Assembly: GCA_030636025.1 (NCBI GenBank)
Contig: DAOVXQ010000003.1
Coordinates: 1-32,480 of the forward strand
Origin: an archaeon
Lineage (GTDB): Archaea; Nanobdellota; Nanobdellia; Pacearchaeales; GW2011-AR1
Reading direction: 5' to 3'
Length of the DNA stretch: 32,480 nt
Part shown: piece after piece, positions 1,443-32,281 of the stretch
How positions within the stretch are numbered: position 1 is the stretch's first letter
How the letters are laid out: every line of letters begins with the position of its first letter
Notes under the pieces: generated by a model
What the model saw: the letters and a program-made list of their open reading frames with translations, nothing else
The model's database searches: none
What the model was told of the DNA's origin: nothing
Position numbers and translations under genes: made by a program

Positions 1443-1553
1443 ATGAAAATATCAATATCTCACAACATTAATCCATTTAGAGATTTAGGTTATGGGGGCA
1501 GGAATTTAAGAGATATAAACAGGGGGGGGGTGGAGAACACAAATTCAATATGA
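1443..1553 (+). CDS. Leader-repeat small ORF copy A (36 aa: MKISISHNINPFRDLGYGGRNLRDINRGGVENTNSI)
   Basis: Starts 1 nt after the stop of ORF 119-1441; TGA overlaps the ATG at 1550; matches other copies (ISISHxINxFRD). Confidence 0.6.
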   Translation: MKISISHNINPFRDLGYGGRNLRDINRGGVENTNSI

Positions 1554-1798
1554 AAAATAAAATATCAAAATCTTATAGTATTAAGGAGTTTGGGAGAAGA
1601 GTAGTTGATTTAAAATTTCTCACTTTTAGAGGTATAAGTTTTGGGGGCGGGGCGTCTCCTGTATCTTATAGTTTGGCGAAAGGCAAGATTTATAAATCAA
1701 GTATACTTAAGGGTATTACTAATCTTCGGATTAGGTTTATATCCCCCAGTGATCTCCGGGTTGCTGGATGTTTTCATATTTTTGGAGGATTTTTATAA
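1550..1798 (+). CDS. Leader-repeat small ORF copy B fused in frame to a GT4 N-terminal fragment (FGGGASPVSYSLAKGK) and then to promoter-like sequence; likely a mosaic remnant
   Basis: MKNKISKSYSIKEFGRRVVD matches copy D (5231); GGGASPVSY matches the GT4 at 10856-11944; stop TAA overlaps the ATG at 1798. Confidence 0.5.
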   Translation: MKNKISKSYSIKEFGRRVVDLKFLTFRGISFGGGASPVSYSLAKGKIYKSSILKGITNLRIRFISPSDLRVAGCFHIFGGFL

Positions 1799-2367
1799 TG
1801 GAAGATTGTATTATTATTGTTGATAATGGTTTCTTTAAATTAGTTAAGAAAGAATTTGAGATTAAGACAAAAACAAAAAAGAAACTATTACAGACATTTA
1901 GGAATGTTTGTAAAAATGAGAATCTTAATCTTAAACATTTATTTTTTTGTGCAGCCCCACCATATCAAAGCAATAGTCCCAATAAAAAAGAAGATGAACT
2001 AAAAAGAGGTTATGACAATTTGATTAAATTATTAAATTATAAAAAATGGATTACGGTTCGTGAAGGTAGATGCCAGAGATTAAAAATTAATGGCGAATAT
2101 ATATATTCTCAAAAAGGGGTTGATTCTTGGATTGTAGCAGATTTATGCAGAATTTCAAGATATTTTCCTGATGTAAAAAAAGTAATTTTAATTTCTTCAG
2201 ATTCTGACTTTGCTCCAATTGTTAAGGAAGTTAAAGAAAAAGATAATATTGAGGTTATATTGTATACTTATTTTGACAGAAAAAGAAATAGCTGTTTCTC
2301 GCTAAGCAATCATCTTCAAGATGTTTGTTCTAAATGGATAAAATTAAAATCAGAGGACTTTGATTAA
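1798..2367 (+). CDS. NYN-domain (LabA/DUF88-like, PIN-superfamily) putative RNase
   Basis: IIIVDNGFF..., KGVDSWIVADLC..., KKVILISSDSDFAPIVKEVKEK; RBS-like ggagg before ATG 1798 (ORF track start 1768 less likely). Confidence 0.75.
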   Translation: MEDCIIIVDNGFFKLVKKEFEIKTKTKKKLLQTFRNVCKNENLNLKHLFFCAAPPYQSNSPNKKEDELKRGYDNLIKLLNYKKWITVREGRCQRLKINGEYIYSQKGVDSWIVADLCRISRYFPDVKKVILISSDSDFAPIVKEVKEKDNIEVILYTYFDRKRNSCFSLSNHLQDVCSKWIKLKSEDFD

Positions 2368-2368
2368 T

Positions 2369-2503
2369 ATGAAAACTAATACATCAAAATCTTATAATAT
2401 TAATCTCTTTGTAGATGATATCCATAGTAAAGCAAACTACTCATCTCCAAAGCTCCCCCCATTTATAGAATATAAAAAGTTCGTGGGGGCGGGGCGGATT
2501 TAA
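2369..2503 (+). CDS. Leader-repeat small ORF copy C (44 aa: MKTNTSKSYNINLFVDDIHSKANYSSPKLPPFIEYKKFVGAGRI)
   Basis: Direct translation; TAA (2501-2503) overlaps the ATG at 2503 of the degenerate copy of the 5349 gene. Confidence 0.6.
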   Translation: MKTNTSKSYNINLFVDDIHSKANYSSPKLPPFIEYKKFVGAGRI

Positions 2504-2660
2504 TGAAAAAAACACAAATTACTACAACATACTAAAACATTTTACAATAGGGATAGATGTTTTGTTTGGGTTTATGCTTTTGATAAGTCCGATTATTTGG
2601 GCGTGGAGGTTGCCTTATTCGATTATGATGCGGGTTTATGGGGAGGGGTGGAAAGATTTA
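2503..2660 (+). pseudogene. Degenerate, internally deleted copy of the 5' end of the membrane glycosyltransferase gene at 5349
   Basis: caaattactacaacatactaaaacattttacaatagggatagatg matches about 5358-5405, then jumps to ataagtccgattatttggg.gtggaggttgcctta (matches about 5953-5990). Confidence 0.7.
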
Positions 2661-2667
2661 TAAACAA

Positions 2668-2687
2668 ATGGAAATATATATTTCCAT
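2668..2687. promoter_or_regulatory. 20-bp perfect palindrome ATGGAAATATATATTTCCAT, putative autoregulatory operator
   Basis: Between TATA-like gatttataaac and ATG 2688 of an HTH-MNT gene. Confidence 0.7.
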
Positions 2688-3218
2688 ATGGAAAGAAAAT
2701 TAAATATATTAAAACCTTTTTTTGAAGATTCAACCAGAAAAATTAGCATCAGAGAATTATCAAGAATATTGAAAATCAACCACACTACTGCAAGACAGCA
2801 TCTAAATAAATTAACTGACGAAGAGATTTTACATCTTGAAAAAAAAGGAGTTTATTCCTTTTATGAGATAATTTTATCCCGGAAATTTTTGAATTTAAAA
2901 TTATTTTATAATCTTGAAAAAATAAGAAAATCTAACCTCATTGATTTTCTTCTTGAAAATTATGAGTTTCCAACAATGGTATTATTTGGAAGTTATGCTT
3001 CTGCTACAGATAATATGAATAGTGATATAGATATTTGTTTAATTACTAATGTAAAAAAAGAAATTTCTTTTGAGAAGTTTGAAAAAAAATTAAATAGAAA
3101 GATAAGTTTGCATAAATTTAATAAAACTGAATGGGAAAAATTGAAAAAAAGAAATCCGAATTTAGTAAATAATATTTGCAACGGGTTAGTGTTATCTGGG
3201 GAGTTTGAGGTAATATAA
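2688..3218 (+). CDS. HTH + MNT-type minimal nucleotidyltransferase (antitoxin of MNT/HEPN module)
   Basis: N-terminal HTH (ISIRELSRILKINHTTARQHLNKL) + VLFGSYASATDNMNSDIDICLI. Confidence 0.85.
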   Translation: MERKLNILKPFFEDSTRKISIRELSRILKINHTTARQHLNKLTDEEILHLEKKGVYSFYEIILSRKFLNLKLFYNLEKIRKSNLIDFLLENYEFPTMVLFGSYASATDNMNSDIDICLITNVKKEISFEKFEKKLNRKISLHKFNKTEWEKLKKRNPNLVNNICNGLVLSGEFEVI

Positions 3219-3631
3219 TGAATTTTAATAATTCTCTAAATAGTGGAAAAGCAAAAAAGATTTTGCCAAATAAAATCCGTGCAGATAGTTTATTTAAGTC
3301 ATCAGTTCAGGCGATTGAAACAGCCAAGATTATACCTTTAAATCCCTCCACTGCAAAAACTATCCTTAGGGAATCTTATGAAGGATTAAGAGAGTGTTGT
3401 GAGGCGATTGGTTTTTTACAGGGATATAAATTCTTAGACCATCAATCAATAGGTTATTTTCTAAGGGATATTCTTAAACAGGAAGCAATATTCAATAAGT
3501 TTGACAGATATAGAAAACTAAGAAATGGAATTAGTTATTTTGGAAATAGTATTGAAGTTGAAACTATTAAAGAAATAATTGTGGAAATTCCAAAATTGGT
3601 TAGAGAACTAAAGAAAATTATCCAAAAATAA
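3218..3631 (+). CDS. HEPN-domain protein, putative toxin partner of 2688-3218
   Basis: Start overlaps upstream stop; helical; C-terminal RKLRNGISYFG resembles the HEPN R-x4-6-(H/Y) motif. Confidence 0.75.
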   Translation: MNFNNSLNSGKAKKILPNKIRADSLFKSSVQAIETAKIIPLNPSTAKTILRESYEGLRECCEAIGFLQGYKFLDHQSIGYFLRDILKQEAIFNKFDRYRKLRNGISYFGNSIEVETIKEIIVEIPKLVRELKKIIQK

Positions 3632-3715
3632 ATTCTGTATAATAAAAATTTGAATTCTAAGTTTCCCTCTTTCCCCACACCAAACCTTTAAATATAGTCA
3701 TTCTTGAATAGTAAA

Positions 3716-3988
3716 ATGAGGATTCACGCAATAAAATCTGTTAGTGAAGTTAGTGGCAAGGCAGTTAATCATTTTAAAGAATATGATTATTACAGCATAC
3801 TAAAACATTTTATAATAGGGATAAATGTTTTGTTTGCATTTATGCTTTTATTTAATTATCTTGGGTTTTTGCCTGAATTTTGGAATATGAATATGATTTA
3901 TGTTTTTTATGGGGTTGTTGGTTTGAATACTTGTTTTTTTGCTTTTAAGATAAATAAGATTCCTGAGGGGGAGAGAAAAAATATTTAA
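3716..3988 (+). pseudogene. Truncated copy of the N-terminal region of the glycosyltransferase at 5349
   Basis: YYSILKHFIIGINVLFAFMLLFNYLGFLPEFWNMNMIYVFYGVVGLNTCFFAFKIN nearly identical to 5349-5535; diverges after FKIN; TATA-like tttaaatatag about 27 nt upstream of ATG 3716. Confidence 0.8.
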
Positions 3989-4007
3989 GGATTGTTTAAA
4001 ATTTAGA

Positions 4008-4559
4008 TTATTTTTTAAAAATAATCTCTTTGGTTTGGTCAAGGCACTCCTTGCATAACTGAATATTTGTTTCAATTTCTTCCTTGTTATTTACTGAAGA
4101 AGTTGTTCCATAGGTATAAAATTCTCTTTTTTCGATTATATTTGTTTCATGTCGTTCTTTTTCATCATATGTTTCAAGCGAGAATATAAATTTTTTATTT
4201 ATTTCTATTTTTCCTGTTTCTATTAAGTGTTTAATTAATGCAAGTGTGCATTCTTGATTTCTGCTTTCGTAACCAAATTTTAAAGCTATTGCTAAAAAAC
4301 AGTGATAGATGCAGTAAAAAACCGCACTCATGCTCCAATCAGAAAATCCTCCTTCTGCGAAATAATTTATTGCAAGAAGATTATGTTCTGCTTTAGCAAG
4401 ATGCTTTCTTGCTTCATTGACATTTTGATTTACTTCAATCAATCCTCTATGCTTTTTATTTTGGCTTATTTCCTCTTGTGCTTTTTTTAAGCACCATCTT
4501 ATTTTATTTTTTGCATGAGTCATTTTATTGAATTTTTTTGCTAATTTTTTCTTGACCAA
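4008..4559 (-). CDS. HEPN-domain protein, putative toxin
   Basis: AEHNLLAINYFAEGGFSDWSMSAVFYCIYHCFLAIALKFGYESRNQECTLALI resembles HEPN; paired with an HTH-MNT gene. Confidence 0.8.
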   Translation of the reverse strand: MVKKKLAKKFNKMTHAKNKIRWCLKKAQEEISQNKKHRGLIEVNQNVNEARKHLAKAEHNLLAINYFAEGGFSDWSMSAVFYCIYHCFLAIALKFGYESRNQECTLALIKHLIETGKIEINKKFIFSLETYDEKERHETNIIEKREFYTYGTTSSVNNKEEIETNIQLCKECLDQTKEIIFKK

Positions 4560-5094
4560 ATAAGACTACTCCTGTTTTTATTATTTCTATTAAAGTTTTA
4601 TTCTGATTTTGAATGTCTTTTTCAAAATCTTTTTTCTCTTGAAGTATTAAATGAATTTTTTTTAATAATATTGTATTCTTTTGATTTATTATTTTTTTAA
4701 TATCTTTGAACATCTTTTTGTCTGCAACAACAAGCAAATCTATATCTCTTGCAGATTTTTCTCTATGCAATATTGACCCAAATAAAATTGCAAAGTGCAT
4801 TTTGTTTTTTAATTGCTTAAATTCTTCAATCCATTTTTTATTGTTCTGGGCTTCAATAGTCAGAGCCATTTCAATTTCTCGTTGTGTAAGGGGATTTTCT
4901 ATGTCCAATGAGTAGATAACTGCTTGACCAATTTTTTTTGCTTTAACAATCTCTTTTTTTTCAAGTTTTTTTAGTATCTTAAATGTTCCTGCATGACTAA
5001 TTCCTACAACTTTACTCATATTTCTACTATTATAAGGTGTTAAAAAATCCTTAAAAAGAGTTTTTATTATCTCTTGTTCTTTTTTTAGTTCCAT
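4525..5094 (-). CDS. HTH + MNT-type nucleotidyltransferase
   Basis: HTH (NMSKVVGISHAGTFKILKKLEKK) + FAILFGSILHREKSARDIDLLVV. Confidence 0.85.
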   Translation of the reverse strand: MELKKEQEIIKTLFKDFLTPYNSRNMSKVVGISHAGTFKILKKLEKKEIVKAKKIGQAVIYSLDIENPLTQREIEMALTIEAQNNKKWIEEFKQLKNKMHFAILFGSILHREKSARDIDLLVVADKKMFKDIKKIINQKNTILLKKIHLILQEKKDFEKDIQNQNKTLIEIIKTGVVLFGQEKISKKIQ

Positions 5095-5109
5095 TATTTT
5101 ATATTTCCA

Positions 5110-5140: not shown

Positions 5141-5149
5141 GGCTTTATT

Positions 5150-5230
5150 TAAACCTTTCTTCAATGCTTGTTACTACTCTAAAATAATCCTCTTAGTAAA
5201 ACTTATAAACGAGTTTTATGATGAAATTGT
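5150..5230 (+). promoter_or_regulatory. Conserved leader-repeat promoter, copy D
   Basis: cttataaacgagttttatgatgaaattgt shared with 12073-12153, 13364-13444 and 14191-14270 (reverse strand); TATA about 27 nt before ATG 5231. Confidence 0.7.
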
Positions 5231-5338
5231 ATGAAAAATAAAACATCAATATCTTATAGTATTAATGAGTTTGGGAGAAGAGTAGTTGATTCAAAGCTCC
5301 TTCTTTCAGGAGATATAAATCGGGGGGTGGGGAAATAA
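5231..5338 (+). CDS. Leader-repeat small ORF copy D (35 aa: MKNKTSISYSINEFGRRVVDSKLLLSGDINRGVGK)
   Basis: Direct translation; ends 10 nt before ATG 5349. Confidence 0.65.
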   Translation: MKNKTSISYSINEFGRRVVDSKLLLSGDINRGVGK

Positions 5339-5348: not shown

Positions 5349-7583
5349 ATGAAAACACAAACAAATTACTACAACATACTAAAACATTTTACAATAGGGA
5401 TAGATGTTTTGTTTGCATTTATGCTTTTATTTAATTATCTTGGGTTTTTGCCTGAGTTTTGGAATATGAATATGATTTATGTTTTTTATGGGGTTGTGGC
5501 TGTGAATACTTGTTTTTTTGCTTTTAAGATAAATTCCCAAAGAGGGATGACCCATGAAGGGCCTAAAATTCCAGAAAAAGGGTCCCGTGGGGATGACCCA
5601 ACTCTCGAAGTTGGGCCTAAAGATTCAAAGATGATTTATTATTTTAGTCATTTCTTTTTGCTAAGTTTGGTTGTTATTGCTTTAAATCAATTCCTTAAGA
5701 GGCAGATAATTATTGATAATTTAGGGGCGATAAGTGCTGTGGCGATTGCATTTGGGTTTTTGACATTTTATGCTTATAGGAATAAGGTAGAGAAAGAGAT
5801 AGAGGATGAAAAGGTTGGAGAAGAAAAGGCAGAGAAGAAGAGGTTGGGGGAGTTTGATAAGAAGTTTAAGTGGTTGAAGTTTTTTGATTTTAATTATGGT
5901 ATTGGGAGGGCTTTCAAGGAAGGGAGATATTTTTTTGGGATATTTAGGGTTTTAATAAGTCCGATTATTTGGGTGTGGAGGTTGCCTTATACGTTGGGGA
6001 AGTGGGTTTACAAAGAAGGGTGGTTGTATTCTGCATTATTCATTTTATTAGTAGTTCTGTTTTTAGGATTAAGATTATACTCATTAGATTATATTGATGG
6101 AAGTGATAATTATAATGATGTTGCCATAAAAGCATTATACGAAAACGGACATTCATTTTATAATTATTCCATAATAACAACTCAACTAATGTTATTATCT
6201 GTTAAAATGTTTGGATTTAATTTTCCTGCATTAAAATTGCCCTTTATTTTTTATAGTTTAATTACAATTATATTTATTTATTTTATTTCAAAATTTATTA
6301 ATAAAAAGGTTGCATTGTTAAGTATGTTCTTATTTGCAATTTCTCCATGGTCAATAATTTTATCAAAAGTAACTCGGGATTATGCCTTTGATTGTATGAT
6401 TGGAAGTATTGTTTTATATTTAGGTATTTGTATTTATCAAAAAACTAAAAATAAAGATATTAAAAAGAATTTTTATAATCTTTTGTATTTGTTTCTTTTA
6501 TTTGTTTCAGTTTATGTTTTATCAAAATTAAATATTAGGCCCCAAATGCTTCTGGTTCTTATCTTTCCATTTATAATTGGTATTTTTATTATTTATAATC
6601 TTTTAAAAGATTATTTAAACAGAACCCTCAAACCCTTAAAATTTTTAAGGGCCTCCTATTTTTCAATTCTTCTATTTGTTATGGCTGTTTGTTTTTATTT
6701 TGTAAAATCTTCTCCATTTATAAAAGGATATTTATTTGATAGATTTTATTTTGATGTTTTTTTTAATCCACTAATAGGATCTCCTTGGCAATGGTTCCAG
6801 GATAATGTTATTTCAATTCTTTTAGTTTTTTCATTTTTTCTTTTGCCCATTTTATTTAATTTTTTAAATTATAAGAAAAAAGATCTAGTTAATATCTTTT
6901 ATTCGATATTCTTTTTTGGAATCAGTCTTTATTTATTTAAATTTGAAAGTTATTTAAAATATAATCCTACAAGATATATTTATTTTTTATTTCCAATTTA
7001 TTGTATCCTCTTTTCGTTATCGATCTTTTATTTTATTAAAAATTATAAAAAAATGAATTTTCAAAAATTACTTGTAATTTTAACACTTATCATTTTATTT
7101 TTTAATTTTACCTCCATTAATTATGCAATTAATCCTATAAAAGCATATGAAAAAGATGGGATATCAAACTTACAAATTGATAATATTGGCACTGGAAGAT
7201 TTAAAATGGAAGCCATTATTTCATTTATCAAAAAAAATGATCCTAATTTAGAAGAAATTTATGTTATTTCTGGGAGATTTGACGAATTTATTTTATTATT
7301 GGATTGGCCAATTGATCAAAATAGAGGTATTACTAGTTATGAAAGGATGAAATATGATGTTGGAAAAAATATGTTTATTGAATCATCTTATTTCGACATT
7401 TATGAATTAGAAATTGCTTTAAAAAAATATCCCTACGGGTATTTTATTACTGAAGAGAATTCAATTTATTATGGAATCGATAAAGAATATACATTAGAAG
7501 AAAAAGATATTAAGTATAATGGATTTTTTCTTGAATTTATGGGGTGCTTTAATAATTATAAGGTTTACAAATGGGATATCTAA
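5349..7583 (+). CDS. Multi-pass membrane glycosyltransferase (GT39/PMT-like)
   Basis: About a dozen hydrophobic segments; DYIDGSDNYND and SPWSIILSKVTRDYAFDCMIGSIVLYLGI typical of GT39/PMT_2-like enzymes. Confidence 0.7.
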   Translation: MKTQTNYYNILKHFTIGIDVLFAFMLLFNYLGFLPEFWNMNMIYVFYGVVAVNTCFFAFKINSQRGMTHEGPKIPEKGSRGDDPTLEVGPKDSKMIYYFSHFFLLSLVVIALNQFLKRQIIIDNLGAISAVAIAFGFLTFYAYRNKVEKEIEDEKVGEEKAEKKRLGEFDKKFKWLKFFDFNYGIGRAFKEGRYFFGIFRVLISPIIWVWRLPYTLGKWVYKEGWLYSALFILLVVLFLGLRLYSLDYIDGSDNYNDVAIKALYENGHSFYNYSIITTQLMLLSVKMFGFNFPALKLPFIFYSLITIIFIYFISKFINKKVALLSMFLFAISPWSIILSKVTRDYAFDCMIGSIVLYLGICIYQKTKNKDIKKNFYNLLYLFLLFVSVYVLSKLNIRPQMLLVLIFPFIIGIFIIYNLLKDYLNRTLKPLKFLRASYFSILLFVMAVCFYFVKSSPFIKGYLFDRFYFDVFFNPLIGSPWQWFQDNVISILLVFSFFLLPILFNFLNYKKKDLVNIFYSIFFFGISLYLFKFESYLKYNPTRYIYFLFPIYCILFSLSIFYFIKNYKKMNFQKLLVILTLIILFFNFTSINYAINPIKAYEKDGISNLQIDNIGTGRFKMEAIISFIKKNDPNLEEIYVISGRFDEFILLLDWPIDQNRGITSYERMKYDVGKNMFIESSYFDIYELEIALKKYPYGYFITEENSIYYGIDKEYTLEEKDIKYNGFFLEFMGCFNNYKVYKWDI

Positions 7584-9813: not shown

Positions 9814-10859
9814 TTTTCTTTTAAAACATCATTATAAACTTTAATATATTTTGGGACTTGCTTTTCTGCTGTAAATTTATGGACATCTTTTAGATTATTC
9901 TTACTAATTCTTTCTATTTCTTTTGGATTATTTTTTAAATATAAAATTAATTCTTTCATTTTTTCTATATCTCCTGGGGGAAAAAGGTAGCCATTTCTAC
10001 CTTCTTTTACTATTTCTCTCATTCCGGGGATGTCTGAAACTAAAATGACTAATCCCCGAGCCATTGCTTCTAGAATAGTTAAAGGAAATGCTTCTGTATA
10101 AGATGGTAGAATAAAAATAGAAGAGTTATCATAATATTTTAAAATTTTATGGTTATCAATTTTCCCATAATTCTTAATATTTTTTTGTTTTGTATTAATT
10201 TTATTGCCTCCAATAAATTTAAAATTAACATCTTTTATAATTTTACTAATCTCTAGTAAATCGTAGAATCCTTTTCGTCTTTCATATCTTCCAACAAATA
10301 AAATGTTATTATTATATCTCTTTTTCTTTCTAATAATATTTTTCTTATCTATAAAATTATTAATTACTTCTGATTTTTTAAGAAATTTTTTTTTAAATAA
10401 AGTATATCTCATTAGGTTCTCTTCTTGACCTTTTGTTAAAAAAATTAATTTTTTTGAAACCAAAGTACAGTAGTTAATAATTAAATAAATAAAAATATTT
10501 TGGGTAATATCTTTTTTTATTGCTGCTCCGAAATTTCCATGGAAAGAATATATTATCTTATTCTTAAATAAAAAAAAAGGGGAAAATAATATCCAGGTTT
10601 TTACATGATGGATATGGAGATAATCTGATCTTAAAAATTCCCTTAATTTTGACCATAAACCAAGATAAACCACTTCCCCTTTTATTCTAAAACAAAAGAT
10701 TTTTTCTTTTTTAAGTTTTTTAAACATCTTTTTTCCCAGAGAAGAAAAATAAAAAATCCTTCCATTTATTTTATTTTTTTCTAGGAATTTATAAATTTTT
10801 TTAAAAATTATCTCTGCCCCACCATTAAATCCTGGGATAATATGTAAAACCTTTTTCAT
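9807..10859 (-). CDS. GT4-family glycosyltransferase
   Basis: ILFVGRYERRKGFYDLLEI ... SYTEAFPLTILEAMARGLVILVSDIPGMREIVKEGRNGYLFPPGD. Confidence 0.92.
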   Translation of the reverse strand: MKKVLHIIPGFNGGAEIIFKKIYKFLEKNKINGRIFYFSSLGKKMFKKLKKEKIFCFRIKGEVVYLGLWSKLREFLRSDYLHIHHVKTWILFSPFFLFKNKIIYSFHGNFGAAIKKDITQNIFIYLIINYCTLVSKKLIFLTKGQEENLMRYTLFKKKFLKKSEVINNFIDKKNIIRKKKRYNNNILFVGRYERRKGFYDLLEISKIIKDVNFKFIGGNKINTKQKNIKNYGKIDNHKILKYYDNSSIFILPSYTEAFPLTILEAMARGLVILVSDIPGMREIVKEGRNGYLFPPGDIEKMKELILYLKNNPKEIERISKNNLKDVHKFTAEKQVPKYIKVYNDVLKEKC

Positions 10860-11944
10860 CCTTCCACCTCTCTAATATATTCCTTAACCACATTATCCCA
10901 ATTAAACTTTTCATTTAATTTAACCCTTACAAAACCCCCCCTCATCACATCCTCAATCTTCTTCTTTAATTCTTTAATATTCTTAACTTCAAACAAATTC
11001 TTCTTCGGCACAACTTCAGGATTTCCTCCGACATTACTTGCTATGATTTTACATCCAGAAGCTATGGCTTCTAAAAGAACTATGCTCATATTTTCAAACC
11101 AACTCGCACTTACAAAAATACTCGCTTTTCCATAAAGTTCTTTCATTTCTTTACTATTATTGTCTATCCATCCATGAAACTTAACAACCTTGCCTAAACC
11201 ATTTACCTCAACTTTATTCTCCAATACCTTCCTATAAGGACCATCTCCAACAATATCCACTTTCCAAGCTTTTTCTTTTAGATTAATGCCCTTCAGGGCA
11301 TCTAAAATATCTTGAACACCTTTGTTTTCAAATAATCTTGCAACTACTAAAATTCTTTTTTGCTTCTTTAGGGGTTTGAATTTATTTTTATCAATCCCAT
11401 TAGGAATAACTATGAATTTTCCTTGTGTTGTTATTTTTTTAATTTCATCTTGTAAATATTTTGATGGGGTTGTGATGATGTTCGCATTTTTTATTATTTT
11501 CTTCCAAGGTTTTACTAAAAAAGGGTATAGTTTTTTGAATCTTTTATTATAACCCAAAACATCACTACCATGACTTGTAACAATATACTTTAACCCAAAC
11601 TTTTTCTTCAACCACAAAGCCAAAACCCCTGTCGGAATAATAAAATGGCAATGGCAAATATCATACTTATTATTTTTCATATGTTTCCTCAGAAACATCT
11701 TTGCAGAAATTAAATATGTTAATTGCTCCCAAGGATGACAGATTTCTTTCTTGCTTCTTAAACATTTCACCCGATAAATCTCAATTCCATCCTTAATCTC
11801 TTTTTCTGGCAATCCTTTAAACCCCATCGTCACAACCCCAACATCATGCCCTAATTTAGTGTAACCTTTGGCAATCTCAAAAGATACAGGAGACGCCCCA
11901 CCCCCCAAAGGCGGAAATTCATAGTTAAGCATTAGGATTTTCAT
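10856..11944 (-). CDS. GT4-family glycosyltransferase; source-like gene of the GGGASPVS(Y/F)EIAKG fragments
   Basis: MKILMLNYEFPPLGGGASPVSFEIAKGY ... LVVARLFENKGVQDILDAL ... VLLEAIASGCKIIASNVGGNPEVV. Confidence 0.93.
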   Translation of the reverse strand: MKILMLNYEFPPLGGGASPVSFEIAKGYTKLGHDVGVVTMGFKGLPEKEIKDGIEIYRVKCLRSKKEICHPWEQLTYLISAKMFLRKHMKNNKYDICHCHFIIPTGVLALWLKKKFGLKYIVTSHGSDVLGYNKRFKKLYPFLVKPWKKIIKNANIITTPSKYLQDEIKKITTQGKFIVIPNGIDKNKFKPLKKQKRILVVARLFENKGVQDILDALKGINLKEKAWKVDIVGDGPYRKVLENKVEVNGLGKVVKFHGWIDNNSKEMKELYGKASIFVSASWFENMSIVLLEAIASGCKIIASNVGGNPEVVPKKNLFEVKNIKELKKKIEDVMRGGFVRVKLNEKFNWDNVVKEYIREVEG

Positions 11945-12072
11945 ATTGAATTCCCCACACCCAATTTTATATTATTGAAATGAAGGAGTTTTGGATAAGA
12001 GTTGTTGCTCTTAATATCATCTCTAAAAAGGTTAATGCTGTGAGATATAGATATTTTAGTTTGTTTTTTCAT
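11941..12072 (-). CDS. Leader-repeat small ORF copy E (43 aa: MKKQTKISISHSINLFRDDIKSNNSYPKLLHFNNIKLGVGNSI)
   Basis: Reverse-strand translation; TGA overlaps the GT4 ATG (ATGA) at 11944. Confidence 0.7.
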   Translation of the reverse strand: MKKQTKISISHSINLFRDDIKSNNSYPKLLHFNNIKLGVGNSI

Positions 12073-13106: not shown

Positions 13107-13238
13107 TTAAATCTTTCTTTTTTTATTGTTTATCTTTATGTTATAAATAACTATCTTGCCTTTGGCAATTTCATAACTTACTGGTGATGCCCCACCCCCC
13201 AATGGTGGAAATTCATAGTTAAGCATTAGGATTTTCAT
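13107..13238 (-). pseudogene. Truncated GT4 N-terminus (MKILMLNYEFPPLGGGASPVSYEIAKG, then non-homologous tail)
   Basis: First 27 codons match the GT4 at 11944 with mainly synonymous differences; homology stops at AKG (13158). Confidence 0.85.
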
Positions 13239-13363
13239 TTAATCCCACTCCCCTGTTTATATTCTATAAATGAAAGGAGTTTTGGATAAGAGTTGTTGCT
13301 CTTAATATCATCTTTAAAGAGATTAATGCTGTGAGATATAGATATTTTAGTTTGATTTTTCAT
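13235..13363 (-). CDS. Leader-repeat small ORF copy F (42 aa: MKNQTKISISHSINLFKDDIKSNNSYPKLLSFIEYKQGSGIK)
   Basis: Reverse-strand translation; TGA overlaps ATG of the truncated GT4 at 13238. Confidence 0.7.
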   Translation of the reverse strand: MKNQTKISISHSINLFKDDIKSNNSYPKLLSFIEYKQGSGIK

Positions 13364-14190: not shown

Positions 14191-14270
14191 TTGTTTATAA
14201 TTTCATCATAAAACTCGTTTATAAGTCTTACTAATATGATTATTTTAGAGTAGTAACAGGGATATTTAAA
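14191..14270 (-). promoter_or_regulatory. Conserved leader-repeat promoter, diverged copy followed by degenerate ORF
   Basis: catcataaaactcgtttataagtctta shared with copies E/F; gagtagtaaca shared with copy D (reverse strand). Confidence 0.6.
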
Positions 14271-15712: not shown

Positions 15713-15816
15713 TCGTAAGATACAGGAGATGCCCCCACGAACTTGTTTATATCCCCTAAATGGAAGGAGTTTTGAAGCAACAAAATCATCTCCAAACTCA
15801 TTAATATTATAAGATA
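15713..15816 (-). repeat. Leader-repeat copy G (..ISYNINEFGDDFVASKLLPFRGYKQV) fused to a GT4 fragment ending at AKx
   Basis: Reverse strand: cttataatattaatgag ... cttccattt ... aagttcgtgggggcatctcctgtatcttacgagattgccaaaag. Confidence 0.6.
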
Positions 15817-15876
15817 TCAAAAAAAAGGTTAAAACTTAGGTTGGCGAAGCCCCAAGTTTATTGTTTAATTTTATTT

Positions 15877-15990
15877 TCATCTTGAATTCCCCACACCAAT
15901 ATTTATATCCCAAAAAGAAAGTGGCTTTGAAGATGAGTTGTTGCTCTGGACATCTACAAAGAGATTAATGCTGTGAGATTTTGGTAATTT
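15877..15990 (-). repeat. Leader-repeat copy H, degenerate start (..KLPKSHSINLFVDVQSNNSSSKPLSFWDINIGVGNSR*)
   Basis: Reverse-strand translation; no ATG in the expected place; TGA still overlaps an ATG at 15880. Confidence 0.55.
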
Positions 15991-16023
15991 ATATAATCCG
16001 CCTTTGTAAAATATTTTTTTAAT

Positions 16024-16127: not shown

Positions 16128-16529
16128 ATGAAAATTGAAGAACATGAAAAAGCATACAAAGAACATTTAGAAAATCTTAATCAGGCGATTGAAGAAGGAA
16201 TAGAAGAGAATCAGAGAAATGTTGGGTATAATGTTTCTCAGGGCTCTGTAGAATTGTTTGCAATATATCTTCATAAACTGCGATTTATACAAGATTCAGG
16301 AGACCAGTTTGACCATAGAATTTTTAAGAATAAAAATCAAATAGACAAAAAAATACCTGCAGAATTTCCAGATAGGGAAAAGATATTGAGCTTGATGAGA
16401 GATATAGAATTAGAAAGAAACATTCTTTGCTATGGAAGAAGAAAACAAAACGAAAAAATTGAAAAACTTATTAAAATATTTAATAAATTAAGGAAATTAA
16501 TAAATACAAATTTAAAACAAAATGGATAA
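16128..16529 (+). CDS. HEPN-like protein, putative toxin of HEPN/MNT pair
   Basis: All-helical; RNILCYGRR near C-terminus resembles the HEPN R-x4-6-(H/Y) motif; overlaps the MNT gene start. Confidence 0.65.
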   Translation: MKIEEHEKAYKEHLENLNQAIEEGIEENQRNVGYNVSQGSVELFAIYLHKLRFIQDSGDQFDHRIFKNKNQIDKKIPAEFPDREKILSLMRDIELERNILCYGRRKQNEKIEKLIKIFNKLRKLINTNLKQNG

Positions 16530-17139
16530 AGAAAAAGATTTAGTTGCATATGCAATTGATTTTGTAGCTTATTTAATCACTAAAACAAATAATTTAGATA
16601 GGGTTATACTTTATGGTTCTGTGGCAAGAGGGGATTTTAATGAAGATTCTGATGTTGATTTATTTATAGATTCAAGAGAAAATATTGAGAAAAAAATAAA
16701 TAAAATTGTGGATAATTATTATAAGACAAAGAAATTCAAAGAATGGGAATTAAAAGGAATTAAAAATACGATTTCGGTTATTGCAGGAGAATTAGATTCT
16801 GAAGAATGGAAAAACCTCAAAAGAAGCATCCTAAACACTGGAATTATTTTGTATGGAAAGTATAAGGCAGAATCAGATAAAATAAATCAGTATACTTTAT
16901 TTTCTTTTGAGAATATAGTCCCTAATAAAAAAAGGATTTCAATTTTCAGAAAATTATTTGGATTTAAAGTTGGGAAAAAAGAATATCCAGGGTTGGTTGA
17001 GAAAATTAATGCTATCAAGGTTGGAAAAGGTAGTCTTCTCGTTCCAATTGAACATACAAATGAACTAAAGAAATACTTTCATAGTAAAAAAGTTGCAGTA
17101 AAATTATATGATTTGTGGTCGGATAGTAAATTAAATTAA
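16522..17139 (+). CDS. MNT-type nucleotidyltransferase
   Basis: LDRVILYGSVARGDFNEDSDVDLFID. Confidence 0.88.
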   Translation: MDKEKDLVAYAIDFVAYLITKTNNLDRVILYGSVARGDFNEDSDVDLFIDSRENIEKKINKIVDNYYKTKKFKEWELKGIKNTISVIAGELDSEEWKNLKRSILNTGIILYGKYKAESDKINQYTLFSFENIVPNKKRISIFRKLFGFKVGKKEYPGLVEKINAIKVGKGSLLVPIEHTNELKKYFHSKKVAVKLYDLWSDSKLN

Positions 17140-19422: not shown

Positions 19423-19974
19423 TTAATGTATTAATACATAAAATTTCTTGAATTTAATTTTAAAATTTAAAAAAAGCTTTTCAAAAATATTCTCATTTTC
19501 TACAGGCAAAATAAACACCTGATTTGCAAGCCATTCCCCATTATTTTCTCTAACTAAACCTTTTTCTTTATTTTTCCCCCTTAAAATATTCACAATTTTA
19601 ACTTTTATAGAGGGTTTTAGACTAATAAGTTCATATTTAAACAAAACTTTATTTGAAAACTTATAAATCTGAGAAAAAGAGCATTTATTTTTAATGCTAT
19701 ACCCTTCCCTTAATAAAGTGTGGATTATCGACGGAGGATTTGCAAAAAAGTCATTTGGTTTTAGGACAGAAACATGAAAACCTGAGATTTTTATTCCCGG
19801 TTTATTGGTTATTACTGCTATATCTGTGTCTTGTGGAACTGCTTTCCCTTTTACAGCAGAGCCAAATACAATTATATCTAAAATTTCTTTATCTTTAAGA
19901 TATTTTTTTAATTTATTTTTTATTAGTAATAATCTTTTTGAGTTCATTTGCATATTCTTTAAGTTTATTTGCAT
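19423..19974 (-). CDS. MNT-type nucleotidyltransferase (true start probably at an internal Met)
   Basis: LDIIVFGSAVKGKAVPQDTDIAVI; overlaps the HEPN gene. Confidence 0.8.
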   Translation of the reverse strand: MQINLKNMQMNSKRLLLIKNKLKKYLKDKEILDIIVFGSAVKGKAVPQDTDIAVITNKPGIKISGFHVSVLKPNDFFANPPSIIHTLLREGYSIKNKCSFSQIYKFSNKVLFKYELISLKPSIKVKIVNILRGKNKEKGLVRENNGEWLANQVFILPVENENIFEKLFLNFKIKFKKFYVLIH

Positions 19975-20245
19975 CTTTTTGTCTTAAGCGAAGATTATAA
20001 GATTGAGTGTAAATTTTAAAAAAATCAGAAACTTTTTGATATGCCTCATTAAAATATGTTTCCAGTAAAGAAAATCTTTGATTGTGATTTTTTGGCATAA
20101 CTCTAATTTGATTGTAAATTAAATAATCACACAAAATTACAATTGCTTTAAAAAAATCTGAGACAGCTACATTAAATCTTTTTTTTATTAAATTTTCTTC
20201 TCCAGATTCTAAAAATTCTTCAGCATTTTTTAAAAGTTCTTCCAT
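19913..20245 (-). CDS. HEPN-domain-like protein
   Basis: NAEEFLESGEENLIKKRFNVAVSDFFKAIVILCDYLIY; adjacent MNT. Confidence 0.7.
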   Translation of the reverse strand: MEELLKNAEEFLESGEENLIKKRFNVAVSDFFKAIVILCDYLIYNQIRVMPKNHNQRFSLLETYFNEAYQKVSDFFKIYTQSYNLRLRQKDANKLKEYANELKKIITNKK

Positions 20246-25969: not shown

Positions 25970-26035
25970 AAAGCCACACATCCTCATATTTTCTAAAATC
26001 GCAAATCTTAAAAACCTTTAATTCTTAAGTTTTTT

Positions 26036-26291
26036 GTAGACAGGCTGGCGTGTTAGCCCTACGCCATTTGCAAGTGGGCTTTAGGCAGGCTGTAAGGAGG
26101 GAAGTGATATATGCTTTAAGAAACCCTTAATTTAACGTTGAGGTTTCGTCCTCTTTGACATTGCTATTGTAAATTGAGTCAGACCCTGACCGGAGCAGCT
26201 CTAAGCAGTAATTAATGTGCTTAGAGGGTCGCGAGGCTGAGGAGAATTAGGGTAACTTTTTTAAGGTTTGTTGAGCAACCCTCTGGTCTAC
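26036..26291 (+). ncRNA. Signal recognition particle RNA (archaeal 7S-like)
   Basis: Helix 8-like GAGtcagACCctgaccGGAGCAGCTC with AGCAG loop, co-linear with eukaryotic CAGGUCGGAAACGGAGCAG; downstream GGGTCGCG; Alu-domain-like CTGTAA; ends pair (GTAGAC 26036-26041 / GTCTAC 26286-26291); TATA-like cttaaaaacctttaa upstream. Confidence 0.75.
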
Positions 26292-26322
26292 GCTGAAACT
26301 TTAATCCCCTCTAAACCACTTC

Positions 26323-26365
26323 TTCCGAAATCCCAAAAGCACTAAGAACTGCGTGAGGATTTTTA
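26323..26365. repeat. 43-bp direct repeat (copy 1) of the 3' end of the secretion ATPase gene
   Basis: ttccgaaatcccaaaagcactaagaactgcgtgaggattttta; 41/43 identical to 27537-27579. Confidence 0.9.
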
Positions 26366-27467: not shown

Positions 27468-27533
27468 GGTCACTATATAAATCTTGCGGAATCATCAATT
27501 ATGTTTTTTACTACTAAAATCATCTCAATCAAC

Positions 27534-29060
27534 TTATTCCAAAATCCCAAAAGCACTAAGAACTGCCTGAGGATTTTTATGATATTGATTGATGATTTTT
27601 TGAGTCTGGTCAAAATCAAAAATTTTCTTCTGTTGCAAAACATACAAAAGTTTTGCCCTCGAGGCAAACTCTTTATTCAATTCTTCAATAGTCAGTCCAA
27701 ATCTTTCTGCGATTTTATTAAAAACTTTATTGTCTTTTTTAAAATAAAAAATATCATCCGCCGGATTCCACATAAAAGGCGTATTTGTTATTGCAGTTCC
27801 GTTCGCATCAACATTAACTATTTCAACAATTTTTCTCAATTTCCTTATTTCTTGTTTATCTACAATTGCATGAGTCATTATAGCGACGCAGTCCAAAGTA
27901 TTAAGCAATGTTGGAGAAAGTTCAATCGGAGGAGTCTCAAGTCTTTTAACAAGTGTGTCAACAGAATCTGCATGCATTGTGCTTATTGAAGAATGCCCTG
28001 AAGCCATTCCCTGAAACAGCACAAATGCCTCCTTTCCTCTGACTTCGCCGACAATAACATAATCTGGATTTTGCCTAAATGAATTTTTTAATAAACTAAA
28101 CAAATCAACCTCCCCCACCCCTTTCTCCCCCAACGCAGTTCTTGAAACACTTGGCAGCCAATTTTCCCTCGGTAAATGAAGCTCCCGAGTATCTTCAATT
28201 GAAACAACTCTTGCCTCAGGAGGTATAAAAAAAGCAATAGCATTCAACAAAGTTGTTTTCCCCGAAGAAGTCCCCCCAGTAATTAAAATATTTGATTTAT
28301 AATCTAACAATATCCAGAAATAAGCAAGCATTTCCGGACTCAATGTTTTCATATTCAGCAACTGAATCGGAGTCCACGGAACTTTAGTAAATTTTCTTAT
28401 TGTAAAAGTCGGTCCTTTTGTTGTAATGTCTTTTGTATAAGTGGCATTAACCCTGCTCCCATTTGGCAAACTACCGTCCAGCAAAGGCGAAGCATATGAA
28501 ACATATTTCCCGCACCTCTGAGCTAATTTTTCAACAAAACTTACAAGCTCGTCCATGGATTTGTAAACCACTCTTGTTTTTATATTCCGGTATAATCTAT
28601 GAACAATATAAATCGGGGTATTCACGCCATTGCATTCAATATCTTCAATAAAATAATCCCGAATCAATGGCTCAATTTCATTTAATCCAACAAAATCCCT
28701 AAACAAAAAATAAAATATTTTTTTATAACTCTCGTCGCTGATGTTCAAAGATAATTCTTCAATCAAAAGTTTCGATGTTTTATTTATATATTCAATCATT
28801 GATTCTGTTGTTTTCTGAACAGCAATGCTCACATTAATCATTTCCCCTAAACTTTTTTCAAGGGTCGCTAACAGCAACTTTTCATTTTCATCTAAAATCG
28901 GTTCTTCTACTTCATAAATTAACTCATTGGTTTTTTTATCCCAATAAATATGGACGCTGACATACGGCGCAATAAGAGTATACCTGACATTAATTTTTGT
29001 CTTATCCTCAACTCGCGGAAGCGCAGGAATACTTGGATTTAAATTTATTTCTATTGACAT
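27534..29060 (-). CDS. Type II/IV secretion / type IV pilus assembly ATPase (TadA/VirB11/GspE family)
   Basis: ILITGGTSSGKTTLLNAIAFFIPPEARVVSIEDTRELHLP ... PDYVIVGEVRGKEAFVLFQGMASGHSSISTMHAD. Confidence 0.96.
   Translation of the reverse strand: MSIEINLNPSIPALPRVEDKTKINVRYTLIAPYVSVHIYWDKKTNELIYEVEEPILDENEKLLLATLEKSLGEMINVSIAVQKTTESMIEYINKTSKLLIEELSLNISDESYKKIFYFLFRDFVGLNEIEPLIRDYFIEDIECNGVNTPIYIVHRLYRNIKTRVVYKSMDELVSFVEKLAQRCGKYVSYASPLLDGSLPNGSRVNATYTKDITTKGPTFTIRKFTKVPWTPIQLLNMKTLSPEMLAYFWILLDYKSNILITGGTSSGKTTLLNAIAFFIPPEARVVSIEDTRELHLPRENWLPSVSRTALGEKGVGEVDLFSLLKNSFRQNPDYVIVGEVRGKEAFVLFQGMASGHSSISTMHADSVDTLVKRLETPPIELSPTLLNTLDCVAIMTHAIVDKQEIRKLRKIVEIVNVDANGTAITNTPFMWNPADDIFYFKKDNKVFNKIAERFGLTIEELNKEFASRAKLLYVLQQKKIFDFDQTQKIINQYHKNPQAVLSAFGILE
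27537..27579. repeat. 43-bp direct repeat (copy 2), 3' coding end of the secretion ATPase
   Basis: ttccaaaatcccaaaagcactaagaactgcctgaggattttta. Confidence 0.9.
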
Positions 29061-29760: not shown

Positions 29761-30282
29761 TTAACAATCCTCAATATAGTCGCCTAAAATACTGTCTTCT
29801 ACAGGGCAAGTTTTTCCACCCTGCAAAACAGAATAAATTTTAATGTCGTCGGGTTTTTCAGAAATTTGAATAATATATATCTTTTCTCCATTATCTTCAG
29901 GGAGTTCAATTTCTGAATCACTATACATAGAAACTCCTGTGATGGCAGTTCCATTTTTTATTTTAATTGTTTTACCTTCTGCGCCCCCGAGTTTTATATT
30001 AAAACCTTCTATTAAATCCCTGATATCTCCAATCTGAACTTTCAAACTTAAATTTGTAACATCCTCTGAAGAATCAATTCCATAGCAAGTATATTTTGGA
30101 TTATGGTCTATTTCTAATTTTCCGATAACATCTAAACAATTTCCAGAAGAAAGTTTGTCTCTGACAAATGGGAGAACAAAACTGAAAATTATCGTCGCTG
30201 TTGCAAGAACTAATAAAATTAAAATTACTGTGGAGATTATCTGACTCTGTGCTTTTCGGTTAGATATATTTTTTGAAATCAT
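29761..30282 (-). CDS. Archaeal type IV pilin/archaellin-like protein
   Basis: NRKAQSQIISTVILILLVLATATIIFSFV class III signal-like. Confidence 0.82.
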   Translation of the reverse strand: MISKNISNRKAQSQIISTVILILLVLATATIIFSFVLPFVRDKLSSGNCLDVIGKLEIDHNPKYTCYGIDSSEDVTNLSLKVQIGDIRDLIEGFNIKLGGAEGKTIKIKNGTAITGVSMYSDSEIELPEDNGEKIYIIQISEKPDDIKIYSVLQGGKTCPVEDSILGDYIEDC

Positions 30283-30764
30283 ACTATAACTCCTGTGTTT
30301 TCAGGACATGGAAATGGCTTTATCATCCCAGATTGAGTTTTCCCCAAAAGAACTGGAATAATTTTTACCTCATCAAATTCTTCTTCATAATATTTTTCAC
30401 TATCATCTTCATCTTTGAAAACAGTAGAAAGTCCAATATCAACTTTCCCGCCCCTATCACTGCCAATTTCATCTATGGTAGATGTTCCATCTGTGTTAGT
30501 TATTTTTAAATTAATAGAATAAATAGGAACATTTCCAATATTATGAAACCCAAATGATTTTGAGGTGCTGTCTTCATTCACAAAACTTCTAATGCTAACT
30601 TCTGAACAAACATTTTCTATTGGTTTTTCTGCACCTCCTGAAAATTTCAAAATCTGTTCTCCTTGAAATCCCTGATACCATAATAAAATTATAATCGCAA
30701 TTATAATTACAATCATAATTAAAACTACTGTAGATACCATCGGGCTCACCGCCTTTTTTCCCAT
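30279..30764 (-). CDS. Archaeal type IV pilin-like protein
   Basis: MGKKAVSPMVSTVVLIMIVIIIAIIILLWYQG; 4-nt ATGA overlap with the next gene. Confidence 0.87.
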   Translation of the reverse strand: MGKKAVSPMVSTVVLIMIVIIIAIIILLWYQGFQGEQILKFSGGAEKPIENVCSEVSIRSFVNEDSTSKSFGFHNIGNVPIYSINLKITNTDGTSTIDEIGSDRGGKVDIGLSTVFKDEDDSEKYYEEEFDEVKIIPVLLGKTQSGMIKPFPCPENTGVIV

Positions 30765-30811
30765 ACACTTTAATATTTTCTAAGTATATAAATCTTTTTT
30801 AAGAAAGATGA

Positions 30812-32152
30812 TTAAGGGCAAGGGGAATAATCATCTGGTGTGGTTGGCCAACTTACACATCCACTAACACTATTAAAATTATTATCATTACCAAAACCAA
30901 TTAAATCTATACCATTACATAAAAAATCCTTGTCAATATTATCGCAGGCACGATTTCCAGTAAAGTTATTATTTGAAATTGAATTTCCTGCACGGAACCC
31001 ATATCTTGAATGATGAAGATTATTGTTGATAAAATCATTATTTGAACCTAAAACATAGATTGATTCTCCATCAATACTTCCCAATATACTAGAGACTTCA
31101 TTATTTATTATTTTATTATTGCTTCCTAAAATATAAATTCCCATTTCAGAATCTTCAATTTGGTTTCCTTCAATATAATTAAATTCAAATGAATTCAGTT
31201 TAATCCCCACCCCTCCGTAATTAATTAAATTATTAGTTATATTATTTTTATTAGAATTTATCAAAATTCCTGTTCCTTCAGTTGTAAGGATTATCTTGCA
31301 ATTCTTTATTGTGATATTATCTTGATCAAAATAAATTCCTGCAACATCATTATTACTTTTTATATAATTGTCATAACTTTGGCAATCAAATGTAATGTTT
31401 TGAGCAGTTATAATAATGCATCCAATTCCCTCTATTGAATTATTAGCTATACTATTCATTAATATATAATTTGTGTTTGGACTATCTAATGTGCTACATT
31501 CAACAACTGGCTCTCCGATTGGGTCTTCGGGTGGCTCTTCTGGTGGCTCCTCACCCCCAGACCCCCCTATATCATCTTCTCTGATTATAGATTGCATACA
31601 AATAATCATTTTATCATTTTCATCAAGCATATATGGCTGAATTTTCAAAACCGCAACCCCCTCTTCAATTGTATAATTAACATTTCTAATTTCTCCAGGT
31701 TTTAATTGTCCAAGAGGATTTTCACCATGAACCACATTTAAGGTTTTCGTTGGCTCTTTTTTTGTGTCATTTTCAACCTGCAATATAATTCCGTCAATAG
31801 TAAAAAGCCCGTTATTTTTCAGATATAATCTCAAAATATTATCACTAGAATTATAACCAACTAAAATTATAGAAGTTCCGTCCTTGCAATCCACAGGTGG
31901 CCGAATTATATCTGGATAATGTTTAATCCAGCTATAAGCACTAATCGAAATTATAATCCCCAATGAAATCAAAATTACATAAGATATCATTAAACTCACT
32001 GCTTTCACATCTGATTTTGACTTAACTTTTCTCGGAAAAGTTATTTTTTTGTTCAAACTTGTTTTTTTAAAAAAGTTCGATTTTGACTTAACTTTTCTCG
32101 GAAAAGTTATTTTTTTGTTCAAACTTGTTTTTTTAAAAAAGTTTGTTTTCAT
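30812..32152 (-). CDS. Class III signal peptide/pilin-like protein carrying a NosD-type parallel beta-helix domain
   Basis: KAVSLMISYVILISLGIIISISAYSW; Glu/Pro linker; ITIKNCKI...GTGILINSNKNNITNNLINYGGVGIKLNSFEFNYIEGNQIEDSEMGIYI. Confidence 0.8.
   Translation of the reverse strand: MKTNFFKKTSLNKKITFPRKVKSKSNFFKKTSLNKKITFPRKVKSKSDVKAVSLMISYVILISLGIIISISAYSWIKHYPDIIRPPVDCKDGTSIILVGYNSSDNILRLYLKNNGLFTIDGIILQVENDTKKEPTKTLNVVHGENPLGQLKPGEIRNVNYTIEEGVAVLKIQPYMLDENDKMIICMQSIIREDDIGGSGGEEPPEEPPEDPIGEPVVECSTLDSPNTNYILMNSIANNSIEGIGCIIITAQNITFDCQSYDNYIKSNNDVAGIYFDQDNITIKNCKIILTTEGTGILINSNKNNITNNLINYGGVGIKLNSFEFNYIEGNQIEDSEMGIYILGSNNKIINNEVSSILGSIDGESIYVLGSNNDFINNNLHHSRYGFRAGNSISNNNFTGNRACDNIDKDFLCNGIDLIGFGNDNNFNSVSGCVSWPTTPDDYSPCP
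32013..32144. repeat. Two tandem 66-bp units (NFFKKTSLNKKITFPRKVKSKS x2)
   Basis: 32013-32078 and 32079-32144 identical except the last base. Confidence 0.95.
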
Positions 32153-32158
32153 TTTAGA

Positions 32159-32281
32159 TTAATCCCCCCCCACAAACTTATTTATATTATTAAAAGGAAG
32201 GAGTTTTAAAGATGAGTTGTGGCTCTGAATGTCATCTCTAAAGAGATTAATATTATAAGATATAAATAATTTGTCTTTCAT
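32159..32281 (-). CDS. Leader-repeat small ORF copy I (40 aa: MKDKLFISYNINLFRDDIQSHNSSLKLLPFNNINKFVGGD)
   Basis: Reverse-strand translation; 1 nt after the upstream CDS stop, same frame as the beta-helix CDS and separated from it by TAA TCT AAA. Confidence 0.7.
   Translation of the reverse strand: MKDKLFISYNINLFRDDIQSHNSSLKLLPFNNINKFVGGD

What the first reader, a model, noticed from the sequence alone, without database searches (positions are those of the whole stretch)
1443..32281. Dispersed family of about 40-codon small ORFs (at least nine copies), apparently undescribed, preceding surface/glycosylation genes
Copies read directly: A 1443-1553(+), B 1550-(+), C 2369-2503(+), D 5231-5338(+), E 11941-12072(-), F 13235-13363(-), G about 15733-15816(-), H 15877-15990(-), I 32159-32281(-). 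Consensus about MKxxxxIS(I)S(H/Y)xINLFrDDIxSxNSSxKLLpFxxIxxxVGxG. The longest intact copies (E, F, I, C) differ at many bases but keep an open frame, length (40-44 aa) and end position. They precede a PMT-like GT, a GT4 and a pilin/beta-helix gene. Apart from B, these ORFs are not in the supplied ORF track, so a standard gene caller would likely miss them. Function (leader peptide, small protein, translational linker) is inference.
Basis: partly seen in the sequence, partly recalled or inferred. Interest (0 to 1): 0.93.

Follow-up and report, generated by a model that had tools for sequence, protein, structure and literature searches.

The report
Palindromic gene-spacer repeat carrying tiny ORFs
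The nine look-alike tiny genes in this archaeal window are copies of a roughly 95-base imperfect palindrome that, in three related archaea, sits by the dozens between the stop of one gene and the start of the next; only in this genome have the copies kept an open reading frame, so a spacer repeat may here have become a small translated leader.

Summary
Nine related copies lie where stated, all open in one common frame over the 26 codons compared. G and H lack a start codon and A is homologous only in part. The interpretation changes. A nucleotide profile made only from same-genus genomes ranks these copies as its best matches in the window, so they are derived members of a ~95-bp imperfectly palindromic repeat. 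Three relatives give 90-113 matches each. There it is non-coding (open frame in 5/43 copies, about the random rate), not found inside genes (0/50), and fills stop-to-start gaps of core operons (L23|L2, L2|S19, Rrp4|Rrp41, Rrp41|Rrp42) that are mostly a few bases or overlapping in relatives without it and in the window's own genome. Signs of translation in the window: nine of nine open, in-frame indels in the ORF body, omega about 0.5 (p 0.03-0.08), start codon one base after the preceding stop (A, C, I) or 28 nt after a TATA box (D, E, F), stops overlapping the next start. Against: a 1-nt frame difference at the 3' end, no protein relatives. Best reading: a spacer repeat exapted as a short coupling or leader cistron; fortuitous ORFs are the main rival.

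The parts
1443..1553 (+). Copy A: 36-codon ORF; ATG one base after the stop (TGA 1439-1441) of the 440-aa ORF; stop overlaps the ATG of copy B
   Evidence: R1 E 6.6e-7
1548..1652 (+). Copy B (repeat part); ORF 1550-1798 continues into a GT4-start-like fragment (GGGASPVSYSLAKGK)
2369..2503 (+). Copy C: 44 codons; ATG one base after the stop of the NYN-domain gene 1768-2367; TAATG overlap with the next ATG; best window match to the repeat of relatives
   Evidence: relatives-only model R3, E 7.2e-7
5164..5230 (+). Upstream promoter module of D (TTATAAA 28 nt before the ATG); 91% complementary to 14196-14263
5231..5338 (+). Copy D: 35-codon ORF in front of the 744-aa membrane GT-like gene 5349-7583
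11941..12072 (-). Copy E: 43-codon ORF; TATA 28 nt before its ATG and TATAAA 27 nt before the ATG of the GT4 gene (10856-11944); stop/start overlap ATGA
13235..13363 (-). Copy F: 42-codon ORF; 98% identical to E over a 171-nt stretch that includes the promoter; followed by a truncated GT4 start
13143..13238 (-). Decayed GT4 gene start downstream of F (89% identical over 80 nt to the GT4 start after E)
14196..14263 (-). Orphan copy of the promoter module without a repeat core
15731..15831 (-). Copy G: repeat core without ATG, running into a GT4-start-like fragment
15885..15995 (-). Copy H: repeat core without ATG; stop overlaps the next ATG
   Evidence: R3 E 1.9e-5
32159..32281 (-). Copy I: 40-codon ORF inside the pilin-like operon; ATG one base after the stop (TAA) of the 179-aa pilin-like gene 32283-32822; the 11-nt string CTAAAATGAAA stands at both edges
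   Evidence: R3 E 5.3e-6

Best explanation
The nine ORFs are copies of a ~95-bp imperfect palindromic repeat that belongs between genes. SHOWN: the repeat occurs in large numbers in three same-genus genomes, between a stop and the next start in the direction of transcription, at junctions that are mostly short or overlapping in relatives without it. INFERRED: in the lineage of this genome a copy acquired a start codon and an open frame. It was multiplied by segmental duplication together with promoters and 5' ends of glycosyltransferase genes (D/E/F, decayed copies) and by placement between cistrons (A, C, I). It is translated as a 35-44 codon leader or coupling cistron: ribosomes start leaderless at its ATG (D, E, F) or re-initiate one base after the preceding stop (A, C, I), read through the inverted repeat, and end on or beside the start codon of the next gene, which keeps that gene translated.
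For: Homology: model R3, built from relatives only, has J as its top hit in the 733-kb genome (E 2.1e-7), and copies of this family fill its first twelve places in the window, with opposite-strand hits (C 7.2e-7, I 5.3e-6, H 1.9e-5, B 7e-5, D 1.1e-4, F 3.5e-4, E 2.4e-3, G 6.8e-3). Pairwise C-J alignment score 65 against a shuffle maximum of 35. Abundance: 113, 90 and 90 matches in G002, G008 and G017. Placement: 0 of 50 inside genes; 30 of 40 with both neighbours called lie between co-directional genes, 27 of 30 co-oriented. Filled and empty junctions at L23|L2, L2|S19, Rrp4|Rrp41, Rrp41|Rrp42. Translation: 9/9 window copies open in the same frame against 5/43 in relatives and 10% for random sequence; ORF-body indels (A, E/F, H, C, D/B/G) are multiples of 3; omega 0.45-0.6, 2dlnL 3.0-4.6; TATA 28 nt before the ATG in D, E, F, where this genome's TATA distances peak at 27-29; stop-N-ATG in A, C, I; stop overlaps next start in A, C, E, F, H.
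Against: No expression data. G and H have no ATG; J and K are not open. A 1-nt indel class changes the C-terminal frame. Omega differs from 1 only marginally, on 24 codons with related copies. No protein relative in 136 related genomes. Several copies are tied to decayed genes. D, E and F share one promoter module, so their TATA spacing is one event, not three. The stop/start overlaps could follow from AT-rich sequence plus insertion at junctions. R3 scores of the window copies are modest at whole-genome scale (B 0.0016, C 0.0028, D 0.0038).
Confidence: 0.55

Rival explanations
1. Purely non-coding intercistronic repeat with fortuitous ORFs: the window copies descend from one copy that happened to be open and have not yet decayed; no peptide function.
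For: Relatives' copies are non-coding (5/43 open); G and H lack ATG; J and K are closed; 1-nt indel near TATAAA; E/F and D/B are close duplicates; neutral survival of the frame per lineage is about 0.18-0.55 at 15% divergence, depending on the indel rate.
Against: Nine of nine open, in-frame indels, omega about 0.5 and gene-like spacing at both ends all point the same way.
Confidence: 0.3
2. A genuine small-protein family of independent function, with the palindrome incidental.
For: Conserved core MKx(2-5)ISxSINLFxDDIxSNNSSxKLLPF across copies; omega below 1.
Against: The same DNA is an imperfect palindrome shared with non-coding repeats of relatives; the protein profile finds nothing convincing outside this genome nor in viral contigs; C-terminal frame not kept.
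Confidence: 0.08
3. Structured RNA (riboswitch, attenuator or guide) whose pairing, not peptide, is selected.
For: Inverted repeat AGATGA..TCATCT; orientation with transcription (27/30).
Against: RNAalifold gives no consensus pairs on 9 or 40 sequences; the top co-varying columns are mostly not Watson-Crick pairs; folding mostly no better than shuffles; no Rfam match.
Confidence: 0.04
4. Integron-type attC recombination sites delimiting gene cassettes.
For: About one site after a gene, co-oriented, imperfect palindrome; toxin-antitoxin-like genes in the window.
Against: No terminal RYYYAAC/GTTRRRY pair in the consensus; neighbours in relatives include core genes (ribosomal proteins, exosome, SecY, aIF2-gamma); copies dispersed; tyrosine recombinases occur in genomes with and without repeats.
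Confidence: 0.01
5. No mobility at all in this genome: copy number arose only by segmental duplication of promoter plus GT-gene 5' ends.
For: E/F 98% over 171 nt, D/E/F share a promoter module, GT4-start fragments follow B, F, G.
Against: A, C, I sit after unrelated genes without the promoter module; relatives show filled and empty junctions.
Confidence: 0.02

Closest known systems
Rickettsia palindromic elements (RPE)
   Same: ~150 bp palindromic repeats, many copies, carrying an open frame with a conserved peptide (review PMC10969869)
   Different: RPEs are often inserted in-frame inside genes; here 0/50 copies in relatives lie inside genes and the ORF is a separate cistron between genes; other domain of life; no sequence relation tested or claimed
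[quoted passage not shown] Chunjie, Correia
   Same: Short, inverted-repeat arms, high copy, filled and empty sites; some known MITEs sit in operons or carry ORFs (PMC10969869)
   Different: No target-site duplication established, no cognate transposase found; unusually strict stop-to-start placement and co-orientation
REP/BIME intercistronic palindromes
   Same: High-copy palindromes in spacers of operons
   Different: ~95 bp, not 20-40 bp; no GTAG/CGTC end in the consensus; not linked to Y1/RAYT transposases (G008 has 90 matches and no Y1 hit)
IS200/IS605-derived MITEs (PATE)
   Same: In G017 several repeat-like cores sit between hairpins that look like IS200/IS605 ends
   Different: The other copies lack those ends
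Leader peptides / translational couplers
   Same: Short ORF in front of a gene, stop overlapping next start
   Different: Not tested functionally; derived from a repeat

Membership tests
MITE | Short non-autonomous element with inverted-repeat arms | tested here: met
   Consensus resembles its reverse complement; many loci are hit on both strands
MITE | Occupied and empty sites in relatives | tested here: met
   Four operon junctions, about 16 genomes each
MITE | Target-site duplication of fixed length | tested here: inconclusive
   CTAAAATGAAA at both edges of I only; none consistent in relatives
MITE | Cognate transposase with same ends | not tested
   Only Y1 and tyrosine recombinase families were searched
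Rickettsia palindromic element | Palindrome with open frame and conserved peptide | tested here: met
   Window copies only
Rickettsia palindromic element | In-frame insertion inside protein-coding genes | tested here: not met
   0 of 50 sampled copies inside genes
REP | 20-40 nt palindrome with GTAG/CGTC tag | tested here: not met
   ~95 nt, consensus lacks the tags (definition from the abstract of PMC3733652)
REP | Associated RAYT/Y1 transposase | tested here: not met
   Y1 presence does not track repeat abundance
Integron attC | RYYYAAC / GTTRRRY at the two ends | tested here: not met
   Consensus TATCAATATCTTATAA...TTTATAAAGATATAAATAA
Integron attC | Mobile cassette array next to IntI | tested here: not met
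   Repeats dispersed, many in core operons; no IntI-specific model was run, only PF00589
Translated small-protein family | Purifying selection on the amino-acid sequence | tested here: inconclusive
   omega 0.45-0.6, p 0.03-0.08
Translated small-protein family | Detected peptide or ribosome footprint | not testable with these tools
   No expression data
Structured RNA | Covarying base pairs | tested here: not met

The most novel reading that the evidence does not exclude
A mobile palindrome that specifically enters stop-to-start junctions of operons has, in one species, turned into a translated coupling cistron: the birth of small genes from a spacer repeat caught at several stages (non-coding in relatives and in J and K, open but startless in G and H, complete in C-F and I), with a dedicated but unknown machinery that targets intercistronic junctions only a few bases wide.
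Probability: 0.3. Interest if true: 0.82.

Novelty: new variant of a known kind. Interest (0 to 1): 0.66.

Why it matters
If right, it shows a high-copy repeat in small archaeal genomes that sits within core operons (ribosomal proteins, exosome), differs in position between sister species, and can become coding. It gives a natural series for studying how spacer DNA becomes a small gene and how archaeal ribosomes pass from one cistron to the next. It also warns that small-ORF families can be repeats in disguise. The targeting of stop-to-start junctions is a concrete open question that strain comparisons can address.

Tried and rejected
RNA structure: no consensus pairing or covariation. Known RNA families: none at gathering score in the window or in two repeat-bearing loci. 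Integron attC: end motifs and context do not fit. IS200/605-REP link through Y1 transposase: not correlated. A target-site duplication that includes the start codon: suggestive for I only, not consistent in relatives. Protein relatives: none convincing in 136 genomes, none in viral contigs; one exact 19-nt piece of the relatives' repeat is absent from viral contigs. A database scan with the downstream GT4 gave GT4 relatives from many phyla; R1 on 21 of those loci gave two weak hits, best E 0.009. The weak G008:C15 hit of the protein profile (E 0.008, two stops) reads as part of a nucleotidyltransferase-like gene and was taken as chance. Papers: no description of this repeat was found in the open library, which is not proof of absence.
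Full report
WHAT WAS CLAIMED AND WHETHER IT IS THERE. The nine copies are present at the stated places. A nucleotide profile of nine copies (B-I and J; model R1) recovers B-I at E = 4e-27 to 2e-17 and A at 7e-7 in the 733-kb genome, plus J (C6:74833-74942, E 1e-16, itself in the model) and K (C13:1595-1702, E 1e-8) outside the window. J and K are real relatives: alignment scores C-J 65 and I-K 63 exceed all of 500 shuffles. G and H have no start codon; A is homologous only in its first ~16 codons and its TATAAA/G-rich end; B and G run into fragments of a GT4 gene start.

ANATOMY. The core reads approximately ATATCtATATCTTATAATATTAATCTCTTTGGAGATGAtATTcAGAGCAACAACTCATCTTCAAAACTCCTTCCTTTTAaggGATATAAATAAG followed by GTGGGG. 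Its two halves are imperfect reverse complements (ATCTTATAA..TTTGGAGATGA against TCATCTCCAAA..TTATAAGAT), as shown by opposite-strand profile hits. D, E and F also share an upstream promoter module, an orphan copy of which lies at 14196-14263. Decayed 5' ends of glycosyltransferase genes follow F, C, B and G.

RELATIVES. Three genomes of the same genus (G002, G008, G017) gave the tell-tale weak R1 hits on both strands. A profile including them (R2) finds 113, 90 and 90 matches there, 6 in G009, 18 in the window's genome and 0 or 1 in the others of the genus. Matches on both strands of one locus are counted twice: in the sampled contigs 73 matches collapse to 58 loci. To avoid circularity a third profile (R3) was made from 40 copies of the relatives alone. 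In the window's whole genome its best hit is J (E 2.1e-7), followed by B and C; searched without filters in the window its first twelve places are copies of this family. It finds nothing at E <= 1e-4 in 108 other genomes of an order-wide sample, a search that used stricter filters and did not include the three repeat-rich genomes among those listed. The homology between the small ORFs and the repeat therefore does not depend on the model that included them.

WHERE THE REPEAT SITS. Of 50 sampled copies in the relatives none lies inside a gene. Of the 40 with both neighbours called, 30 lie between co-directional genes, and 27 of those 30 point with transcription (p 8e-6). They begin typically 0-20 nt after the stop and end about 1-20 nt before the start, with some longer exceptions. 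Neighbours include core genes: SBDS, Rrp4, Rrp41, S6e, aIF2-gamma, L2, S3, SecY. Comparing the same junctions across the genus: L23|L2 is about 1-11 nt or overlapping in most genomes, 1 nt in the window's own, but 106-179 nt with repeat sequence in G008, G017 and G002; L2|S19 is filled in G017 and G002 but 2 nt in G008; Rrp4|Rrp41 and Rrp41|Rrp42 are filled in G008 and G017 but 6 and 1 nt in G002. In G017 some of these fillings are too diverged for a significant profile hit and were judged by eye. A few unrelated longer spacers also occur (for example G010, G005, G003, G011). The assignment of the downstream partners as S19 and Rrp42 rests on conserved archaeal gene order, not on a search. So the repeat comes and goes at junctions only a few bases wide. 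Selection against insertions in genes, or targeting, must explain that; the data do not decide which.

CODING OR NOT. In relatives the frame homologous to the small ORF is open in 5 of 43 copies, near the random rate (10%); in the window it is open in 9 of 9 (Fisher p 5e-7; 7 of 7 if close duplicates are merged, p 8e-6); J and K are closed. Shared ancestry of the window copies makes these p-values optimistic; by simulation an open frame survives neutrally in about 0.18-0.55 of lineages at 15% divergence, depending on indel rate. ORF-body length differences (A -6, E/F +6, H -3, C +6, D/B/G -12) are multiples of 3, whereas near TATAAA a 1-nt difference separates E, D, I, H from F, C, G. Pooled pN/pS is 0.62 in frame against 0.81 and 1.09 in the other frames; third-position excess p 0.05-0.09; codon-model omega 0.45-0.6, p 0.03-0.08. 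In this genome TATA-like motifs peak 27-29 nt before ATG, the mark of leaderless transcription; D, E and F have TTATAAA exactly 28 nt before the small-ORF ATG, and E and H also have TATAAA 27 nt before the next ATG. In A, C and I, behind three unrelated genes, the ATG stands one base after the stop; ATG occurs at about 1.5% of positions. Stops overlap the next ATG in A, C, E, F and H.

READING. Shown: homology to a spacer repeat, its abundance, placement and turnover. Inferred: acquisition of a start and frame in this genome, translation, and a coupling or leader role. I put translation (now or recently) at about 0.55, a role in coupling at about 0.35, and fortuitous ORFs at 0.3.

KNOWN SYSTEMS. 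It works like a MITE-type intercistronic repeat and, in this genome, resembles Rickettsia palindromic elements in carrying a conserved peptide (PMC10969869), but RPEs enter genes in frame and this repeat was not seen to. It fails tested features of REPs (size, tags, Y1 link) and of integron attC sites. Membership in MITEs is open: no target duplication or cognate transposase has been shown. All genomes are anonymous drafts; gene calls were simple ORF calls; the archaeal, small-genome (DPANN-like) placement rests on the genus sharing archaeal marker proteins and an archaeal SRP RNA match in the window.

Noticed in passing
L141, L142, L144, L145 (G017): Near-identical elements with end hairpins CTACCTCC..GGAGGTAG and GCCACGGGCTTTAGCCCGTGG..GATGTCAC, the look of IS200/IS605 MITE ends, enclosing a ~75-nt core that resembles the spacer repeat.
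   Followed up: partly
window 26034-26293 (+): Archaeal SRP RNA, 71 bits, below the Rfam gathering score of 96.5, so a standard scan misses it; fits a divergent archaeal host.
   Followed up: yes
window 32013-32144: 66-nt head-to-tail duplication (98%) at the 5' end of the 446-aa beta-helix ORF, a multiple of three (22 codons twice).
   Followed up: no
window 2688-3631, 4008-5094, 16128-17139, 19423-20245: Four nucleotidyltransferase genes, each beside a small partner (one partner is a HEPN hit), like MNT/HEPN toxin-antitoxin pairs, clustered around the repeat copies.
   Followed up: partly
window 2506-2651, 3704-3988, 5349-6023: Fragments of the 744-aa membrane GT-like gene: 2506-2651 joins two distant parts of it, 3786-3955 is a 95% copy of its start.
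   Followed up: no
window 26313-26365 and 27527-27579: 53-nt direct repeat, 91% identical: the end of the T2SSE ATPase gene appears duplicated next to the SRP RNA.
   Followed up: no
L150 1365-1433 (G000:C14, about 68365-68416): A half copy of the palindrome placed directly after the stop codon of a gene ending ...KIISPEEALEFI*.
   Followed up: partly
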